NCBI RefSeq assembly: GCF_026151205.1
Contig: NC_087077.1
Span: forward strand, 17,099,475-17,163,474
Length of the DNA: 64,000 nt
Direction: 5' to 3'
Source: Bolinopsis microptera
Taxonomy: Eukaryota > Ctenophora > Tentaculata > Lobata > Bolinopsidae
The first letter of the stretch is position 1. Every line of letters begins with the position of its first letter. Below, one piece after another: positions 6,606-46,289 of this stretch. The translations under genes and the position numbers were made by a program. The notes below the pieces were generated by a model. That model had not been told where the DNA came from. It was given only the letters and a program-made list of their open reading frames with translations, and did not search any database.

Positions 6606-8105
6606 AGAATGACTCAGGCCGAAAAGTCAAAAATTATAAAAGTTTTAGTCAAACATTTTTAAAATGTTTTAAAACTTTGTCCTAGCCTGGCGCGCGCTAC
6701 TTTGTAGCACTTGCCTCGGGCCACTTCGAAGAAATTTAGACGAGTAACATCCGTCAATAGTTAACGGGTGATATTCGTAAAATATCTGTTCCAAAAAAAT
6801 TTCAACATTACAACTTATATATAGAGTAACATCCTTGATTGACGATGTCAATCCGTCGAGATCGTTGCTCTGCGAAGCAGAGCAACGATCGTCGACGATG
6901 CGTAGCAAGAATGCTAGTTCGCGCGGCGCGTCGAAGTCCTCCAAGTAACATCCGTAACATACCGTCAATTTTTACGTCATGGGGGTGATTCGGAATCGGC
7001 GTCCAAAAATACATCGATTTAGATCAATGTCATACCCAAGCCGTTCACATAGCCATGTGTATACGCGTACTGCGTGACGCGCTTGTTTCACAAGTTGAAT
7101 ATACAATATATATCCTTTGCCGCCTTCGGCGGTCGCGCGCTACTGCAAGTGAGAGGGCTCTGGTTAGAGCAACCCAAGCCGCGATCAATGTCATACTCGA
7201 GCTGCGATGAATTAACATCGCATCGTCAATTAAGCGGTATGTCCTAATATAAGTAGATGGCCCCTTGTATTGACATACGTTGCATGCCACTTTTCGCGCG
7301 CGCCGCCGATACGAAACATGTATCAAATGGCCCCTTAAAAGATCCCACAGAGCGAACTGCGACCACCGGCTGACCAATTTACCCGAAGCCGCCTCGGCAA
7401 TTACGGTTAATTCCTAACGACATTCCTGGCGACGGGAACCTCGGAGAGAACAACTACAAACTATTATTCCTCAGTTCTCGCTGCTGCAAATTTACTATGT
7501 GTTGCGATCAAGTCACCAGTAATCTCATGCACTAGACTGTTCACTGGATAAGCGATACAATTATCTATAATAATCTATCATAATAGGGTGGTTTTCATAG
7601 ATGACCCTGCTGCCTTGCAGCTAAACAACGTAAAGTAAAAGTAAGCAAATTAACAAATCCACAAATAAATAACGACGCGTAATTAATTAAATAAACACGC
7701 GCAACACGCGCGCGTAACGTCCGTGCGTGCTATGCTGAATTTATACGATAATAGCTATGCGTCCTCCAACTTTGAAGTTTCCACGATTTGATCACAACAC
7801 GGAAGCAGAATCACACAGACGTTCGGTGTAATGGTGTAAGGATGCTATCAATAACAATCAACAGATATAAACAATCCATCAGTCGTAATTTAACTACGAG
7901 TCCACATTAAACTTATTTACATCATATCAAAATCTCGTTTTTACCGCCATCTAAATACCCCGCATATTATTAAACTATAAAAGTATGAATCTAACGCTCA
8001 ATTTGTTGTTAAAAATGGTTATCGAGAAACCATTTTGCACCGTTGCAACGATAAATTATAACATCGATAAGATTCCACTCACATGTCAACTGACGGGGGG
8101 CTCAA

Positions 8106-8111
8106 TTTATT
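8106..8111 (-). terminator. polyadenylation signal AATAAA for the RhoGAP gene
   Basis: AATAAA on the minus strand lies about 200 nt beyond the RhoGAP stop codon. It is the first canonical signal noticed on that strand downstream of the gene. Confidence 0.4.
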
Positions 8112-8308
8112 AAAGCCTGTGACAGCAATTAACCGATTAAACCTTTCTACGAGTCCCTAAGTTTATCTACTATCAAATAACACAATCATTTGCCATCGTA
8201 CAGCAAAAGCATATGCTACAAGAATCGATAAAGGAGTATGGTTAAGAATGGAAGAAGCCTCCTGAAAACCTCTATGGATAAGAGAAAGAAATAAAAACAC
8301 GTAAAAAT

Positions 8309-11300
8309 TCAAGGCCCACAAATAGTGCCGGGCCGAGGTTTAACGGCTGGTCTATCTTTAGCAACAGGCTGAGTCCTCCTCCTTAGTTGGGGTGAAGTTA
8401 ACAACTCTACATTTTTATTAGCACCCGTCAACACGGTGTTGGAACTGCGCGGAGGTGGTAGTGGTGACGATGGCAAGGATGCTCGAGGGCTACAACTTTC
8501 CTGCGCCTGGGTAATGGGGCTGATAAGAGGTTATGAAAGGTATTACAAATATTACAAATATTAGGGGTTTGATTTTACTACCGCTGATCTGTTATCATCT
8601 AGATTCTACAATGTAATTATATAGATATATTTTTGTAAAGCTTGAAAAAAGAAAGCCCCACATGACATAACATTGACCTCTAATAATCTCAAATACTGCT
8701 GTATCATTAGAAGTGTAAGAAAAAAAGGCATACATAAAAGCGAAAAGAATGCGTAATAATATGAAACATAATATATTGCTGTCCCGAGAATGCATTACAA
8801 ATCGATCATATCAGCATAATCAGCTATTATTACTTAAGTGATTGTTAGTTCATTATCTTGATCCTGCAACTGATTGGTGTTCCTTAAATTGACATAAAGA
8901 AATATTAAACAGCATATAATTGTGTTGATGATAATTGACACTTGACACTGAATACTGTACTAACGCGGAAATTACTCAAGGTAGCTTTGTAATTTGTAAC
9001 TTGATTCTGCAAATTTGTAAGTATTTATAAGTTTCTGTAAGTATCAACACAGGCGATGTATTTTTATAGGAAATATTACGATGGCCAAAATACATAGTGA
9101 TAAGAAATGTAAGAAAAGGAATTGTGCCATCCCAACAGTATAAACAGTAAACAGTAATAAAACCTACTTTTTTCCCGCAAAAACTACTTATTTAAAGTGA
9201 GAGTATTTTAAGGAAATGACCGTTAATTTCCCGGTAGTAAGTGATAGTAAGATTATCGTACCTCTAGTCGTTGAACACAGCCTCCTAGATGATCCAGCTT
9301 GTTCTGCTGTTCTATAATAGTGTGCTCCTGATGTTCCACAGTTTGCTGAGATTGCGCCAGCTGCGCACGCAGCGCTGCAATCTCCTTATCTTTTGTGAGA
9401 ATCTCCCGTGATTGTACTTGGTATTTTATCATTTTTACCGTGAATAAATTCTGAAAGGTTTGATAATATCATCAAAGCAGTGTCCTTCTAAAATGAATGA
9501 ATAAGAGAACAGATTATTAGAATGTTTCTATTGAGTTTACTAGAAATAAACCTGACTAAGCATTAACATAAGATGAGAGTTGAAGAAACATACCTTAACA
9601 ATTAACATACCTATTACCCAGAAACATACCTTAAGCTCGTCCGGGTCAATATTTTCTAAATCTAAATCTTCTTGATCTTCTTCCTCCTTGTCAGCAGGAA
9701 ACAGTGTCTCGTGGTTCAATATCATCATCTGAAGAGAAGATATAATCTAACTTCACCAAACACGAGTTATATCCTGTAATATCCTGTAAACTTTTAGTAG
9801 TAATAATAGTTCCTAAACTACATATCATAATAAAATACTATTGAACGTTGAACATTTTACTGAGTAAGACGACACAGTAATAAGCTAGTAGAGCTACTTA
9901 CAGAACAGTGGCGATATCATGTGTAATGAAAATATTGCAATATAGTGTTAACTGTTAAAACTATTTACTCAATCTCCGAGTTCAAGTTTCAACCAAATAC
10001 CATATAATATTATGTAATGCTACTATTCAATAACTACACCGTGGTCAGATCATACATACCCCAGAATACCACAGAATATCACAGAATACCACATACGTCA
10101 TACCATAGATTACGACAGAATAACACAGAATATTACATAACACATACCTCTGTGACTTTTTTAAGTTTCTGTATATCTCTCATCTCTAGATCAAGGTTGC
10201 CACTGTTGTTTTTGAGGATTGTGGGTGAAAATACTATGGCTAAGTTGTTGAGGTCCATCCTGTTGGAGTCTGAGTAAGTCTGCACTTTGAACAGGAACTC
10301 ACAAAGTCTCTGAAAAGCGCGGGGGATTCTGTGATTCAAAATTCAAATTTTCAATTCTGTCATCATAGAATTTCTATGATGACTGTTTGATTATCTGTAC
10401 ATTTTCACAAAGAACGCACAGTAATCTGGGAATTGTTTGTTGGATTGACACTCCTCTGAACAGTTTCAGCACAGTTTTGATAACATTCTTTTAAATTAGT
10501 AAAGAAACTACACGGAGTACAAGTTCGCTACTTTCAGTCACACTTCAATACCTCTACAAGTAACATTAAACCAGTGAACTGTAACTCTTGACTTACAGTC
10601 TTGAAACACACAGCATATTTTACTATAGCGAGTTCAATTTTATTCTCTGACGAAAGCAATTACGCTATTACAATTCTATTCGTACAATTTATCAGAACTC
10701 TTAAAAACACAACAGTTTACACTATGAACTACAGTCTAAACTAAGTTAAATTGTTGTAACTGTATGGAAGCTATCTAAAGAGTGTAGTGTAAGCCTCCTG
10801 ATGTCCCTACTATACATTATAAACTATACATTATACATTATACATTATGCATTATACATTATACATTATACAATATACATTATGCATTATATTTTTATAT
10901 TACGTGTTGTTGAAAGACCTTCGAACGATCAAAGATGTACCTCATCACGCCAAGCAGTTATGCTTGTAGGTTAATATACACTTATAGAGTACAACAACGT
11001 TATAACACCATTATACATTATACACTATACACTATACACTATACACTATACATTGTATTTTTGTAACACTCCCTACTGACCCTGATACAGTTGTAGGCTG
11101 AGCAAGGTATTCTGTTGATCAGGTACCGTAACTCGTTCAACCCTTCTTGCTGTAGGAATAGTAGAGATAAGAGAAAATGTACCATTCATCTTGATATATC
11201 TGTATCATATCAAACAATTAATTAATTAATTAAACAATCCATCTACCTGGTTCAGCTCGTAGGTAAGAATTATAGCCACAAAATCCTCATACAGCGAGCT

Positions 11301-40198: not shown

Positions 40199-40286
40199 GG
40201 TAACCTTAACGAGCAGGATGTGAACTTGATTAGACTTTCATGCTCAACCATCAGAGAAATGTACAGTCTATAACAACAACAGACCT

Positions 40287-42385
40287 GTGAAGCTGCCATG
40301 GGACACATCCTCATTGAAGCGCATGAGAAAGAACAAAGATAAAGCATGGACTGCATTTGATATTGAACCTTCTAGTGTTAATCTTAGTCATGAAAGTAGT
40401 AAACAGCTCATATATGAGAATGATGAAGTGAAAGCAAAGATAAGATATGAGAAGAAGATAACTTCCAATTTAAAGATCAATTGTAAATCATTTTATTCTT
40501 ATTTGAGAAATAAGAGAAAGGTTAAAGCTTCGGTACCAAGTTTAGATAAGGAAGACGGTACAAGGACAACTAGTGCAGGGGAGTCTGCAGAGGTACTTGC
40601 AAGTGCCTTTAGTTCGATGTTTGTTAATGAGCCACTCGGCCCATTACCTAGAAGTTTTAGTAAGAATACTAATAGTATATCTGATATTGTTATTACCTGT
40701 GATAAGGTTAAAAAGGAACTATTAAAGCTTAATATTTTTAAAAGCACTGGCCCAGATGGGCATCATCCAAAGCTGCTTAAGTCCCTAGCTGGAGATGCTA
40801 GTTTTGTAACAGCTCTTACTAAATTATTTAGTGCCTGTAGTGATACTGGAAATCTTCCGGAGGTATGGAAGTCGGCATCTGTAGTTGCACTTTTTAAAAA
40901 GGGCTCTAAGTCTGACCCTCTTAACTATAGACCAGTTTCTCTTACTTGTATTCTTTGTAAAGTTTATGAACAGTTTGTTAGATCCCATGTGTTAGAATTT
41001 TTAGAAGACCGTATTTCAAAGGACCAACATGGGTTTGTTAAAGGAAAATCTTGTTTGTCAAATCTTTTGGAGACTTTCGACACTATACTTAATTTAATAG
41101 ATGAAGGTGCTCCTGTGGACTTATTTTATTTTGATTTTAGTAAAGCTTTCGATTCTGTTCCCCATTATCGCTTGATTAACAAGCTAGAGAGTCTAGGGAT
41201 AACTGGTAAAGTTTTAGATGTAATTACAGATTTTATCTCAAATAGAACTATGAGAGTGTGTGTAGAAGGTGAAACTTCAGAGTGGAAGATTGTATGGTCA
41301 GGAGTTCCCCAGGGATCAGTCCTTGGACCATTACTATTTGTGTTATTTATTAATGATTTACCAGATAACATTAAAAGTAAAGTTAAAATATTTGCTGATG
41401 ATCTTAAGCTTATAGCTAATGCCTCCGAGCATGAAATTATAGTTAATGATCTGAATGAACTAGAGATGTGGGAGAGTAAATGGCTTTTAAAGTTTAATCC
41501 TACTAAATGTTCAGTAATGCATTTAGATGTTAACGATAACCCAAGATCAAGTTATTCTCTTAATGGAGTTACATTGGCAGAATCTGTACAGGAAAAAGAC
41601 TTGGGAGTTATAACCCATAACTCTCTGCTTTGGAATGAACAGATTAAGGCTTCAATATCTAAAGCCAACAGAATGATATGTTGGATTGTTAGAAATCTGA
41701 TTATCAGGGAAAAATCTGTGATGATATCCATTTACAAAGCTTTGATAAGACCCCATTTAGAGTATTGTGTTCAATTGTGGAGTCCAGTTGCGGCTCATGG
41801 AAGTTGGGGATCATCTTGGAGCTGGAGAGCGTCCAGAGGCGGTTTACCCGTCTGATTGATGAGGTGGGTACTCTTTCATACAGTCGTCGACTGGAAATCC
41901 TCAATTTAACAACGCTGGCAGAGCGGCGAATACGTGGGGACCTCATTGAATCTTTTAAAATGATAAGTGGTTTGGCCAATTACGGAGCTGGTTTGTTCAG
42001 TATGAGCAGATCTGGTCTTAATGTGGTATCAAACAGTAGATGCAGTAAAAGTAACAGTAAAATGAAGAAAGTCCACAGTTCTTTTCTTCCGGAGAGGGTG
42101 AGACCATATTGGAACAAACTCCCCTCGGATGTCAAGAATTGTGGGACTGTGTTAAGTTTTAAAATGAGATTAGAGGCTTTCAAAAAAGAGACTATTTTAA
42201 ACGGATCTGTAAATGACAGTCATTTTTGGTATATTTCGGACGAAGTATTAGGAAAGATTGAGGAATTAAATTATGCTACTAATAAAGAGAAGCACAATGA
42301 ATATCTTATGTGTAATCCTCATGTTGCTAAAAAACGTTTTATCAACTTATATAGTAGTGGAAAGTACAGGGTGGCCCAAAAGTGA
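40287..42385 (+). pseudogene. 5'-truncated LINE reverse transcriptase with one frameshift
   Basis: The first frame (40287-41855) holds the polymerase: STGPDGHHPKLLK, NYRPVSLTCILCKVYEQFV, DQHGFVKGKSCL, FDFSKAFDSVPH, GVPQGSVLGPLLF and the catalytic FADDLKL, then thumb-like EKDLGVITHNSLLW. Between about 41800 and 41830 the sequence shifts frame and continues as SVQRRFTRLIDEV and VRPYWNKLPSDV to about 42364. There is no endonuclease domain upstream, so the copy is 5'-truncated, as is common for LINEs. A TA-flanked transposon inserted at its extreme 3' end (42365). CR1/Jockey/L2-type placement is by eye. Confidence 0.88.
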
Positions 42386-43020
42386 CTACCCACACGCAAC
42401 TTCTTAATAACTCACGTAATTCATCTCTAAATTGCACCAAAAGTTCAGAGATTATAGATATGGGTCAAACTTAGATTTCCTGAAAGTTTCGTAAGCCACG
42501 CCCAATTACAGTGGGCGTGGCGTGACACTCCCTCTTTTTCACTATTGTCTTCATAAAATGAGAACGCTTTAAGCTAAGAACTCCAAATTTTTTGCACACA
42601 TGTGGCTTGATAATTTAAAACCTTTCCCGAAGTTTCAAGTTCATTGTTCAAAATTTGGCTGAGTTATGACCATTTCAAAATTCATCGGATACGTGATCCG
42701 AGCACTCAGTCAGTGATCTCTGCACTCAATCAGTGATCTCGTCACCCAATCTGATCAAGAGTAAGGCGTTAGCGTGTATTAATGAGGTTCATTAGGCTTT
42801 ACCAAACATACTGAGGAGATGACGACCTGATCATGATTGATTGGATACGGTCATTGTAAAGTTTGCTTTGCCCAAATTTGACTGCCAAAATTGGTACAAT
42901 TTGACCGGTTGAGCTATTTAGTGAGCTAGCATGCCACCTGGTGTTCACCCTTTGTTAATATTTCACCCAGATGGAAACAAATGTTCACTGGACACTTTAA
43001 CATGTAATCTATATGTGTTA

Positions 43021-44945
43021 CTCAGCCAATGTGGAGCATATCAGTGCTTCAAAGTGACATTTTAAAACTTTTTGCAATCTCGTTGGTAACTGAATCTGGC
43101 AGTCAAAACAGGTTGAGACTCTCAGAAAAAGGTCCCATCTACACAGAAAGCCCCGGTTGAGACAACTTCTAATGCTCAGCCTGTGTGGAGCAGTAGCTTG
43201 AAAGTTAGGCAATTTTCGAGACCAAAAATCATACGCTAAACAGTCAAGTTTTTGGTTGAAACTCTATGAACTTTTTAGCTGAAACCCCTCTCAAGAGTTT
43301 TTGACTATTTGCGATAACACACCATGTCTCAACCGACGTGGAGCGAGGTTTTGGCAATGTAGAAATTTGTAAATTTTTAATTTATTAGCTTTTCATAATG
43401 CTTTTGTTTAGATCTGTAAGATTTTTTTAGCTTGGTAACTCTTACTAACTCTATTTTGAGTACTGAAACGGATATTTATATTCAGTACACTTCTCTCAAC
43501 CCTGTGGAGCCCAAAATGGTTAAAAATTTGCCAACTTTTAAATTCTTTCTGGGTTGAGATAAAGTGACTTCTGTGATTTACATCTTGACTCCTGTATCTA
43601 TATTTTCACCGTTGATGCAGACTCTTTAGTCGAGAACAGCCTATCTCAACCATGTGGAGCAAAAAGAGGTCTTCCTTTTGATCAATCGAGACAACTTTTA
43701 AGTGCTTCATGGGATATTATTTTTATTCATTCTAGAGAAAATATGTTATAATACTGGTGGTCAATAAACTTACTTCACGGGAACTATTCAGTGCTCAACC
43801 TGTGTGGAGCAGAGATGATTTCTGTTGTATTAGATTTTCGAAGCTCACTACTTCATTCTACAGCCGCATGCAAGAGAGATCTTAATCAAATGTTAGGCAG
43901 TTGAGGAATCCCGTACATGACATGTCATTTCTAGCTCTGCTCCACTCTGGCTGAACAGTTCTGGAACATCAATCATGGCCCAATCATGGTAAGAAAAGTA
44001 TTTAAAGTATATCAGTAAACTTTAAATTGCATTACGTACAAATTGGCTACAGATCGACCATCATGGAGACTCTTTTTACCGTAGAAAAGCCTGTTGCTCC
44101 TCACGGTTGAGCATATTGTCTTTTTCTATGGTTGCATATTTCTCTTTAAAGGACACAGTACTACATACATCAACAGCTTCTTAAGTATTGATGATATCAT
44201 TCCTCCTTTATCCTAATATAACAACACTGATCCTTACAAATAGTTGTGTTATCAATCTATCATTCCATTCTGCTCCTCTCTGGTTGAGCCTATTAAATAC
44301 AATTTTTCAATCTGTTCTGCTAGTAATTTATTGTAAAAGCTAAAATACTCATTCTAATTTCTCATCCAAGTCATATCAGCCGATGAGGAGTCATGTTATG
44401 CAGTAAAAGTCCTCTGCTCCACATGGTTGAGCATTACTAGGTTTATCAGCAGTTCCAAAGAATAGAGTCAGGGGGTCTGAACATAATCACAAGAAAAAAT
44501 GATATTTTTATGGCCTGATTAGATGTATTTATCGTTTTTAATCACACTCACTTTCAAAACTCAGTTTCTTCCCAATCAGTATTCCCAACTAAGGTATAAT
44601 AGTTTCGTGCTCCGCATCAGTTGAGCAAGGTGTACCATTATTGATAATGTTATCTGGTGCGTATTCCTTTAAACTAAGATTTTGTGAAAAAACGGAGATT
44701 CTACTGTAATGTTTACCCCTGGTTGAGACGAAAAATATGAGGATATTTCGACTGCTCCACACTGGCTGAGGTCCATTTTATGATTTGGCAGTGAAAATAT
44801 TTTGCAATTAACGTCCAGGATCTATTTGTTAAATGGCGATCAAAATAGTCAAAAAGCATAGATTTTATTGGGGTGCTCCACACTCTTTTGCTCCACATCG
44901 AAAACCAGGTCATAACTTTTGCTCCACATGAGATAGAAACTTCAT
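43021..44945. repeat. array of ~17-bp GCTCAACC..TGTGGAGC motifs, mirror-oriented
   Basis: Forward copies start near 43021, 43175, 43328, 43495, 43645 and 43794, spaced 154, 153, 167, 150 and 149. Inverted copies start near 43939, 44096, 44272, 44416, 44609, 44754, 44875 and 44931. Consensus is GCTCAACCTGTGTGGAGC, with GCTC/GAGC ends making it partly palindromic. The sequence between copies does not look repeated. The orientation flips at about 43870. Confidence 0.85.
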
Positions 44946-45099
44946 TCCAAAGAATTCAGAAAATTCGGAATCTTCAGATGAAAATGATATCAGAAAGGAT
45001 TAAATTGCTCTTTATCAACCTGCTTAAAAATTTAATTCAAAAAGTAGGCAAAATGGGCAAAGCAAAATTGACAATGACCATACCGATAATGACTTTGCT

Positions 45100-45388
45100 A
45101 GACAGGAAAACACAAAATTCTTCGTAAAAGTAAGGTCCTAGGATTCCACGAGAACTGATGGCGCACCAGATCGTGACCTTTTCACCTTTTGTTGACAAAA
45201 TCTATCCTCGATTGGAAATCACGGTCTAAAAGTTGGTGTTTCTTTGTGATCCGATAGGCCCGGTTAGAAAGATCTCGCTTAAGGATTCGTTGAAGGGATG
45301 TTCTGCACACAGGGCAGAACTCCCCATTCTCTTTCTTCAGGTAGACGAACAATCGTTGTTCCGCAGTATAGGGAGGATAGTGAACCAT
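45100..45388 (-). pseudogene. remnant mariner-type transposase
   Basis: Starts MVHYPPYTAEQRLFVYLKK (first helix-turn-helix), then RTSLQRILKRDLSNRAYRIT and HQLLDRDFQSRIDF (linker before the catalytic domain), stops at 45182-45184. In another frame it goes directly to EKVTIWCAISSRGILGPYFY, the segment near the second catalytic Asp. The region carrying the first catalytic Asp and everything after this are missing. Confidence 0.8.
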
Positions 45389-45961
45389 TTTCGATGATTC
45401 AATGGATGGTTCATTCCTTTTTATTGATTGTAAGGAACGAACCTGTGACTAGCAGGGCTAACAAGCCCTGCAACCAATCAAGCGGTGCACGTGAGCCAAA
45501 CAGGCCATTAACCAAGTGACGAGATCACTGACTGAGTGCTCGGATCACGTATCCGATGAATTTTGAAATTGTCATAACTCAGGCAAATTTTGAAAAATGA
45601 ACTTGAAACTTCGGGAAAGGTTTTGAATTATCAAGCCAAATGTGTGCAAAAAAATTTGGAGTTCTTAGCTTAAAGCGTTCTCATTTTATGAAGACAATAG
45701 TGAAAAAGAGGGAGTGTCACGCCACGCCCACTGTAATTGGGCGTGGCTTACGAAACTTTCAGGAAATCTAAGTTTGACCCATATCTATAATCTCTGAAAT
45801 TTTGGTGCAATTTGGAGACGAATTACGTGAGTTATTAAGAGGTTGCGTGTGGGTAGTCACTTTTGGGCCACCCTGTATATAAATTAGATTCATTTTAACT
45901 TGGTTGTTTAGGCCAATAGATTTAAGATAATTTTTAAACTTTAGTAGATATATTTTTGATG

Positions 45962-46057
45962 ATGTGTGATGATGTTTGTGTCATTATATTTTGATTATGA
46001 TTTGATTTCTGAATCAAATCATAATCAAAATATAATGACACAAACATCATCACACAT
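45962..46057. repeat. palindrome 1, 46-bp arms
   Basis: Arms 45962-46007 and 46012-46057 are exact inverse copies around a 4-base loop. The right arm overlaps the left arm of the next palindrome. Confidence 0.9.
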
Positions 46058-46289
46058 TCTCTAACATTAAAAGTCATTTACAAAAGTCAGTCAACAGTCC
46101 AGGTAGATTTTTAATTTTGCTTGTTGATTAAAGGTTGTAGCGCGATGCGTTACTGTGCCGGCACAGTAACGCATCGCGCTACAACCTTTAATCAACAAGC
46201 AAAATTAAAAATCTACCTGGACTGTTGACTGACTTTTGTAAATGACTTTTAATGTTAGAGAATGTGTGATGATGTTTGTGTCATTATAT
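46030..46289. repeat. palindrome 2, perfect 130-bp arms without spacer
   Basis: 46030-46159 and 46160-46289 are inverse copies meeting at GTGCC|GGCAC with no loop. The centre lies inside a GC-rich short element (GTAGCGCGATGCGTTACTG). With palindrome 1, segment 46030-46057 occurs three times in alternating orientation. Confidence 0.9.

What the first reader, a model, noticed from the sequence alone, without database searches (positions are those of the whole stretch)
42367..45875. Mariner-type element whose interior is a mirror-oriented, roughly 150-bp-spaced motif array
The transposase is reduced to two fragments while about 2 kb of non-coding sequence carries at least 14 copies of GCTCAACC..TGTGGAGC. 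Six point one way on the left, about eight the other way on the right, and the left spacings are 154, 153, 167, 150 and 149 bp. The sequence between copies does not look repeated, so this is not a simple satellite. The spacing is near one nucleosome. The array could bind transposase or a host factor on nucleosome-phased DNA, or mark ends in an enlarged non-autonomous element.
Basis: partly seen in the sequence, partly recalled or inferred. Interest (0 to 1): 0.85.

Follow-up and report, generated by a model that had tools for sequence, protein, structure and literature searches.

The report
Nested jumping-gene with evenly spaced sites
The regularly spaced motif array is real, but it belongs to a second, non-coding jumping gene that landed inside the mariner element; it most likely serves as a set of docking sites for a protein that moves or controls that second element.

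Summary
The array is real and far beyond chance, but it is not part of the mariner. A separate non-coding DNA transposon, 42849-45079 (2,231 bp, GGTC...GACC, 26-bp imperfect TIRs), sits inside the mariner between ATAC target duplications; a mariner copy elsewhere keeps the empty site. At least 15 insertions with both ends exist in this assembly, all with perfect 4-bp duplications; the other 14 have none of this mariner in about 0.4 kb of flank. The element holds 12 full motifs (<=2 mismatches; shuffles 0.03), six one way then six the other, spaced 157.5 +/- 15.3 bp, plus 8 isolated half-sites. Left spacers keep faint tandem homology. No transposase-coding partner was found. AcademX transposons here carry a near-identical site, but their ends and 3-bp duplications differ. 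Best reading: a non-autonomous TIR transposon whose body is a mirrored array of protein-binding sites, as in En/Spm subterminal regions but spread through the element at near-nucleosome spacing. Binding is inferred; within-family selection on motifs is only weakly supported.

The parts
42365..42844 (.). left part of the host mariner-like element (long TIR about 42365-42745)
   Evidence: inverted repeat with 45515-45877; 97% to mariner copy L057
42845..42848 (.). target-site duplication ATAC, left copy
   Evidence: unoccupied site in L057 has a single ATAC
42849..45079 (.). array-bearing non-autonomous DNA transposon (element 1), GGTC...GACC, 2231 bp, no stop-to-stop frame above 92 aa
   Evidence: 14 other insertions with both ends, 15 of 15 with perfect 4-bp target duplications
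42849..42874 (+). left terminal inverted repeat of element 1
45054..45079 (-). right terminal inverted repeat of element 1
43021..43037 (+). full motif 1
43175..43191 (+). full motif 2
43328..43344 (+). full motif 3
43495..43510 (+). full motif 4 (1-bp centre)
43645..43660 (+). full motif 5 (1-bp centre)
43794..43810 (+). full motif 6
43939..43955 (-). full motif 7 (orientation flips here)
44096..44111 (-). full motif 8 (1-bp centre)
44272..44288 (-). full motif 9
44416..44431 (-). full motif 10 (1-bp centre)
44609..44625 (-). full motif 11 (window copy carries a private change)
44754..44770 (-). full motif 12
44875..44928 (-). three isolated TGTGGAGC half-sites (44875, 44890, 44921)
   Evidence: 0 elsewhere in the window
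42907..42913 (-). isolated CTCAACC half-site; others at 43111, 43155, 43552, 44721, all on the - strand
   Evidence: 5 seen, 0.07 expected
45080..45083 (.). target-site duplication ATAC, right copy
45084..45877 (-). right part of the host mariner-like element with transposase fragments and TIR
   Evidence: about 226 bp missing relative to L057

Best explanation
The array is the body of a non-autonomous, cut-and-paste type DNA transposon that inserted into an older mariner copy. SHOWN: termini, 4-bp target duplications, clean empty site, at least 15 insertions, 12 regularly spaced pseudo-palindromic motifs with six facing in from each side, isolated half-sites, no coding capacity in the window copy. 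INFERRED: each motif is a dimer site (arms CTCAACC and GCTCCACA share CTCMAC) for a sequence-specific protein supplied in trans, most likely the DNA-binding part of a transposase or an accessory protein of an autonomous relative that is absent or unrecognised in this assembly. The left set then belongs to the left transposon end and the right set to the right end, hence the mirror; cooperative binding along each arm would bring the two ends together. Spacer letters matter little, spacer length may matter. The left array probably began as tandem duplication of a unit of about 150 bp.
For: Nested insertion. Fifteen of 15 insertions with both ends have perfect 4-bp duplications (ATAT 5, TTAT 2, TTAA 2, AAAT 2, one each of ATAC, ATAA, ATAG, ATGT). 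Motifs: 12 against 0.03 by shuffle; 26.6 bits, regular spacing; half-sites 5 against 0.07 expected, and 3 against none elsewhere in the window. Motif units are 90% alike over 15 fixed columns while spacers are near background (0.744 left, 0.737 right, 0.723 shuffled). Tandem origin of the left half: z = 3.2. Copy L011 has two spacer blocks (84 to 69 bp, 109 to 95 bp) replaced by unrelated DNA while neighbouring motifs stay; L014 has a third block. Exact motif forms are nearly private to the family: 44 of 44 hits with the 2-bp centre at <=1 mismatch, 44 of 45 in the CTCAGCC form, 43 of 44 exact in the 1-bp-centre form (but see AcademX for its one-mismatch hits). Analogy: TNPA recognises En/Spm subterminal repeats that act in cis for transposition (PMC2613891, passages).
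Against: No binding protein and no autonomous partner found: TIR searches gave family copies plus 1 of 36 and 5 of 40 unpaired hits (controls 1 and 2). Motif constraint inside the family is borderline: slide fraction 0.06 for changes, 0.09 for variable columns; singletons outside L011 show no depletion (11 of 200 against 130 of 2031 columns, p = 0.38); L011's private changes do (2 of 200 against 82 of 2031, p = 0.015) but come from two blocks and are not independent; chance that three replaced blocks miss all motifs is 0.06-0.10. A 418-bp derivative keeping both ends but only half-sites exists as one duplicated insertion (L019/L020), so the full array may be dispensable. Known subterminal arrays lie near the ends; here full motifs start 172 bp (left) and 309 bp (right) from the termini and fill the middle.
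Confidence: 0.55

Rival explanations
1. The motif is a host protein's site (silencer, architectural or nucleosome-phasing factor), and the element carries an array of it for its own regulation or is recognised through it.
For: Near-nucleosome spacing of 157.5 +/- 15.3 bp; a near-identical 16-bp site in a different transposon family, AcademX-A, could reflect one shared host factor.
Against: Exact forms are almost absent outside transposons: CTCAACCNTGTGGAGC 43 of 44 in element 1 and 1 in an AcademX-A relative; CTCAGCC form 44 of 45 in element 1. A host site would be expected at host loci (inference; the 251 one-mismatch hits were listed only in part). The ctenophore loop factors CTEP1/2 bind a GC-rich motif with two CpGs (PMC12221973, passages); the fixed columns of this motif have none.
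Confidence: 0.2
2. A decayed tandem repeat: the array is a by-product of unit duplication with motifs retained by chance or gene conversion and no present function.
For: Left spacers keep weak in-register homology; recent copies show no motif depletion in singletons.
Against: Motif units 90% alike while right spacers are at background; isolated half-sites at varying distances from the motifs; replaced spacer blocks stop short of motifs.
Confidence: 0.13
3. Element 1 is mobilised by an AcademX (FEN/XPG-like nuclease plus CXC domain) transposase, and the motif is that protein's site.
For: AcademX-A TIRs carry CCCAACCCTGTGGAGC, one mismatch from the motif, in the same orientation to the ends; L024 has an exact match; derivatives repeat the site in mirrored units of about 340 bp; AcademX is reported to make 3- or 4-bp duplications (PMC10045372, passages).
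Against: AcademX-A derivatives have 3-bp duplications in 9 of 10 pairs and ends TACT; AcademX-C 3 bp in 10 of 10 pairs and ends TAAT; element 1 has 4 bp and ends GGTC. Of 8 loci of other AcademX families (L026-L033), 7 have no site in a detected TIR at <=3 mismatches (the ends of L032 are not resolved); L033 has a 3-mismatch site in both TIRs, a level at which shuffles give 0.25 per 2.2 kb.
Confidence: 0.09
4. One reading: the array is part of the mariner and marks or binds its transposase.
For: It lies between mariner TIRs.
Against: Fourteen other insertions without this mariner in their flanks, own TIRs and duplications, empty site in L057.
Confidence: 0.01

Closest known systems
En/Spm (CACTA) transposons and their defective derivatives: subterminal TNPA-binding repeats (PMC2613891, passages)
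   Same: many copies of a short motif near both ends, direct and inverted; non-autonomous derivatives keep them; motif bound by an element-encoded protein (here inferred)
   Different: element 1 has GGTC ends and 4-bp duplications (CACTA: CACTA ends, 3 bp), pseudo-palindromic 17-bp sites, spacing of about 157 bp through the whole body instead of dense subterminal clusters
Mutator-like elements with tandem TIRs (PMC3310237, abstract and passages)
   Same: tandem multiplication of end sequences, mostly in non-autonomous elements
   Different: there whole TIRs repeat; here only a 17-bp site survives and TIRs are 26 bp; MULE duplications are 9-11 bp
AcademX transposons and their foldback-like derivatives in the same genome (L021, L023)
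   Same: mirrored copies of a nearly identical 16-bp site; tandem units in the ends (about 340 bp, and 149 bp in L029)
   Different: 3-bp duplications, TA-starting ends, long TIRs, units still 83-89% alike in L023
piggyBac-type and other superfamilies with 4-bp duplications
   Same: 4-bp target duplication; TTAA in 2 of 15 sites
   Different: ends reported as CC..GG for piggyBac (PMC10045372, passages), here GG..CC; 13 of 15 sites are not TTAA

Membership tests
mariner/Tc1 (array element as part of it) | array found only within mariner termini | tested here: not met
   14 other insertions with both ends and none of this mariner in about 0.4 kb of flank; empty site in L057
mariner/Tc1 | TA target duplication (recalled) | tested here: not met
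   4-bp duplications in 15 of 15, including AAAT and ATGT
TIR (cut-and-paste) DNA transposon, non-autonomous | terminal inverted repeats, fixed-length target duplication, multiple insertions, no transposase gene | tested here: met
   frames were read in the window copy, other uninterrupted copies are 93-99% identical
AcademX | termini alignable over positions 1-11 and same duplication length (Repbase rule for non-autonomous elements, PMC4455052 passages) | tested here: not met
   TACT/TAAT ends with 3 bp against GGTC with 4 bp; tested against two of the AcademX families of this genome
AcademX | FEN/XPG-like nuclease encoded (recalled as the mark of the family) | tested here: not met
   window copy non-coding; the nuclease is present in L021-type elements (fold match)
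En/Spm (CACTA) | CACTA termini, 3-bp duplication | tested here: not met
   GGTC ends, 4 bp
En/Spm (CACTA) | subterminal motif bound by a TNPA-like protein | not testable with these tools
   motif array present; no binding protein known
piggyBac | TTAA duplication and CC..GG ends | tested here: not met
   2 of 15 TTAA; GG..CC ends
Sola | 4-bp duplication (recalled) and Sola transposase | not tested
   no model or sequence of Sola used here
tandem satellite | spacers repeated between units | tested here: inconclusive
   left z = 3.2, right z = -0.6; Tandem Repeats Finder finds none at score 30

The most novel reading that the evidence does not exclude
A non-coding transposon whose whole body is a one-site-per-nucleosome array of convergent dimer sites, kept at fixed spacing while the DNA between is replaced freely: a mobile, self-organising chromatin or synapsis scaffold rather than a deleted gene carrier.
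Probability: 0.12. Interest if true: 0.75.

Novelty: new variant of a known kind. Interest (0 to 1): 0.42.

Why it matters
Mirrored motif arrays in transposons are known to me mainly from plant CACTA elements. Here an animal element (host probably a lobate ctenophore, inferred) carries dimer-like sites at about 157-bp intervals over 1.75 kb with little other conserved sequence between units. If binding and spacing are real constraints, the element is a natural test of how many sites, and how far apart, a transposon end needs in chromatin. For genome readers it is also a clear case of a nested insertion mistaken for one composite element.

Tried and rejected
Array belongs to the mariner: rejected. 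The 4.5-6.9 kb interruptions in three copies might be the missing transposase gene: rejected; two of the three (L034, L036) encode non-LTR retrotransposon proteins (endonuclease and reverse transcriptase read by eye from the frames), and the third (L035) aligns with the first at 66% over 674 bp. Partner with the same TIR: searches found none. AcademX as partner: looked promising from the shared 16-bp site, then weakened by ends and duplication length. The chance of such a motif match in some repeated family is not negligible: my own rough estimate is 0.02-0.06 from the control counts. L011's second replaced block elsewhere in the genome: 1 match, itself; the first block was not searched. Rfam: 17 matches at E <= 1; 15 lie in the palindromes at 45952-46289, the 2 inside 42365-45877 have E 0.65 and 0.94; all 17 are below the families' gathering scores. 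Motif hairpins: z -1.58 to 0.26 for 4 sequences, not remarkable. Pfam on three window frames: only one weak hit, Rgg_C at E 0.019, below its cut-off, taken as chance. Literature searches listed no paper on such an element; the library holds only open-licence papers, and for most listed papers I saw only the listing and the start of the abstract. The AcademH paper cited for AcademX is not held.
Full report
WHAT IS THERE. Its transposase survives as fragments. The motif array is real. Allowing 0-3 bases between the arms CTCARCC and TGTGGAGC, 12 copies have <=2 mismatches, against a mean of 0.03 and a maximum of 1 in 200 dinucleotide shuffles. Six are on the + strand (43021-43810), then six on the - strand (43939-44770). 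Spacings are 154, 153, 167, 150, 149, 145 (across the flip), 157, 176, 144, 193, 145; mean 157.5, sd 15.3; 0 of 20,000 random placements are as even. The motif carries about 26.6 bits outside its two middle columns. Single arms also occur: 5 isolated CTCAACC (0.07 expected from the rest of the window) and 3 isolated TGTGGAGC (none elsewhere in the window). Both arms share CTCMAC, so the full motif is a pseudo-palindrome with two unequal arms, which gives it a direction.

IT IS NOT MARINER DNA. A search with 42850-45060 gave 25 matches in the assembly (the tool calls such counts lower bounds). I fetched every place other than the window, as 20 loci with about 0.4 kb of flank. Compared with the whole 42365-45877, each match stops within 8 bp of 42846 and 45082 or at an internal break; none shows mariner sequence in its flanks. 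The edges show ends GGTC...GACC (42849-45079, 2231 bp) flanked by 4-bp direct duplications: ATAC in the window; in all, ATAT 5, TTAT 2, TTAA 2, AAAT 2, ATAC, ATAA, ATAG, ATGT 1 each, perfect in 15 of 15 insertions with both ends. These 15 are the window and L001-L011 (uninterrupted) plus three copies interrupted by other DNA (L012/13, L014/15, L016/17; the last also rearranged inside). Besides them there are one truncated copy (L018) and one 418-bp derivative present in two copies of a larger repeat (L019, L020; 97% alike over 1035 bp). The derivative's duplication is perfect in L020 and off by one base in L019. Mariner copy L057 reads AATTGGATAC|TGATAATGAC where the window has the insertion: the empty site with one ATAC. 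The window mariner also lacks about 226 bp relative to L057. The case for a nested insertion is therefore closed.

CODING AND PARTNER. No stop-to-stop frame in the window copy exceeds 92 residues. Of the three interruptions, two encode non-LTR retrotransposon proteins and the third aligns with one of them, so they do not hide a transposase. TIR searches found 35 exact family ends of 36 hits, with one unpaired 3-mismatch hit and one control hit, and 35 of 40 with a shorter pattern, five unpaired and two control hits. No autonomous partner is known. Gaps or withheld stretches in the assembly could hide one.

MOTIF AGAINST SPACER. Over 20 aligned rows (12 uninterrupted copies and 8 pieces) motifs changed at 13 of 3017 base positions, isolated half-sites at 2 of 504 and spacers at 264 of 30248; sliding the motif mask along the element gave as few changes in 6% of positions, and as few variable columns in 9%. 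Much of the spacer excess is one copy, L011, in which two blocks (43849-43932 and 44160-44268) are replaced by unrelated DNA of 69 and 95 bp while motifs 6-9 remain; motif 9 of L011 has one more mismatch than the window. L014 has a block of about 24 bp replaced. Such blocks would miss all motifs by chance with probability 0.06-0.10. Variants shared by two or more copies: 0 in 200 motif columns, 24 in 2031 spacer columns (p = 0.10). Private to L011: 2 against 82 (p = 0.015). Both together: 2 against 106 (p = 0.002), but block changes are not independent. Remaining singletons: 11 against 130, no depletion (p = 0.38), as expected for neutral decay after insertion. So evidence for selection inside this young family is weak. 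The stronger argument is between units: motifs are 90% alike over 15 fixed columns while spacers are near background. Left spacers keep faint in-register homology (z = 3.2, 0 of 300 shuffles), right spacers none (z = -0.6), all together z = 1.7, so at least the left half probably grew by tandem duplication of a unit of about 150 bp. A local alignment of all 66 spacer pairs gave a mean z of only 0.18.

THE ACADEMX LEAD. CTCAACCNTGTGGAGC with one mismatch has 251 hits in the genome (4 in the reversed control); only about the first hundred were listed. The 44 exact ones are 43 in element 1 and 1 in L024. Many of the listed one-mismatch hits read CCCAACCCTGTGGAGC or TTCAACCCTGTGGAGC, often as + copies left and - copies right of one place. 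The five places that I fetched belong to another transposon family (L021-L025), whose TIR had 84 scored matches. L021 is about 7 kb and encodes 631- and 963-residue frames; relatives have single frames up to 1569 residues. Six C-terminal parts of this and related families align and end in a CXC domain (profile match to LIN54 at E 0.0012; Pfam TCR in 3 of 6 at E <= 1, best 1.3e-5). A modest model (mean pLDDT 61.6, pTM 0.66) has 7 PDB matches at E <= 0.001, by their titles flap endonuclease, Rad2, GEN1 and a plastid exonuclease, but the superpositions are loose (TM on the query about 0.3). I call them AcademX by this nuclease and by the 3- or 4-bp duplications reported for AcademX (PMC10045372, passages); that Academ encodes an XPG nuclease is recalled. 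AcademX-A and -C are my labels. Derivatives of A have 3-bp duplications in 9 of 10 pairs and TACT ends; the coding copy L021 itself shows no matching duplication. C has 3 bp in 10 of 10 pairs and TAAT ends. Of 8 further loci (L026-L033), 7 have no such motif in a detected TIR at <=3 mismatches (the ends of L032 are not resolved); L033 has a 3-mismatch site in both TIRs, which is chance level. Element 1, with GGTC ends and 4 bp, fails the Repbase rule for joining them (PMC4455052, passages). The shared 16-bp site is therefore chance, convergence, or a shared host factor.

MECHANISM. Committed reading: a non-autonomous TIR transposon in which each half carries a series of dimer sites for a trans-acting protein, used to mark and pair the two ends, as TNPA sites do in En/Spm (PMC2613891, passages). 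Shown: structure, repeated insertion, sites. Inferred: the protein, its source and pairing. Identity as an independent non-autonomous DNA transposon: about 0.97; binding-array function through a transposon protein: about 0.55. The near-nucleosome spacing is suggestive only.

HOST. G000 has 264.65 Mb in 232 contigs; C1-C13 (lengths) sum to 258.1 Mb, 97.5%. Bolinopsis microptera is reported with 13 chromosome-scale scaffolds holding 97.23% of bases and a 1n size of about 254 Mbp (PMC10232365, passages). The figures are close, not identical. The host is probably that or another lobate ctenophore; no marker gene was compared.

VERDICT. Observation largely right, container wrong, functional guess reasonable but transferred to another element. 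New variant of a known kind; moderate interest.

Noticed in passing
42496-42521 and 45721-45747; TIRs of L021, L026-L031: The mariner TIR and the TIRs of several AcademX families all hold CCACGCCC, which recalls KLF/Sp-type promoter sites (recalled); possibly a shared host promoter element.
   Followed up: no
45952-46289: Two large near-perfect palindromes (arms 56 and 130 nt, the second 100% complementary with no loop) directly beside the mariner; likely small foldback elements.
   Followed up: no
L021, L026-L033: A rich set of AcademX-like transposons with open frames of about 1,340-1,570 residues in several lineages (24-99% alike), with FEN-like nuclease and CXC domains; the open frames suggest recent activity.
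   Followed up: partly
L023:1145-4368 and similar places: Foldback-like AcademX-A derivatives with long, nearly perfect arms made of units of about 340 bp; the extra units begin within a few bases of the CCCAACCCTGTGGAGC-type site.
   Followed up: partly
window 44321-44328 in L014/L015 and L016/L017: Two different retrotransposons in opposite orientation are inserted at the same spot of element 1 in two separate copies, suggesting a target preference.
   Followed up: partly
right ends of L017, L018, L019, L020 (window 45067-45070): Their right TIR carries the left-type sequence, as if one end had been converted by the other.
   Followed up: no
40230-42360: Reverse-transcriptase-like frames, read by eye, immediately left of the mariner.
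   Followed up: no
L029:1766-2155 and 8030-8381: An AcademX family with 149-bp tandem units inside its TIRs, close to the left spacings of element 1.
   Followed up: partly
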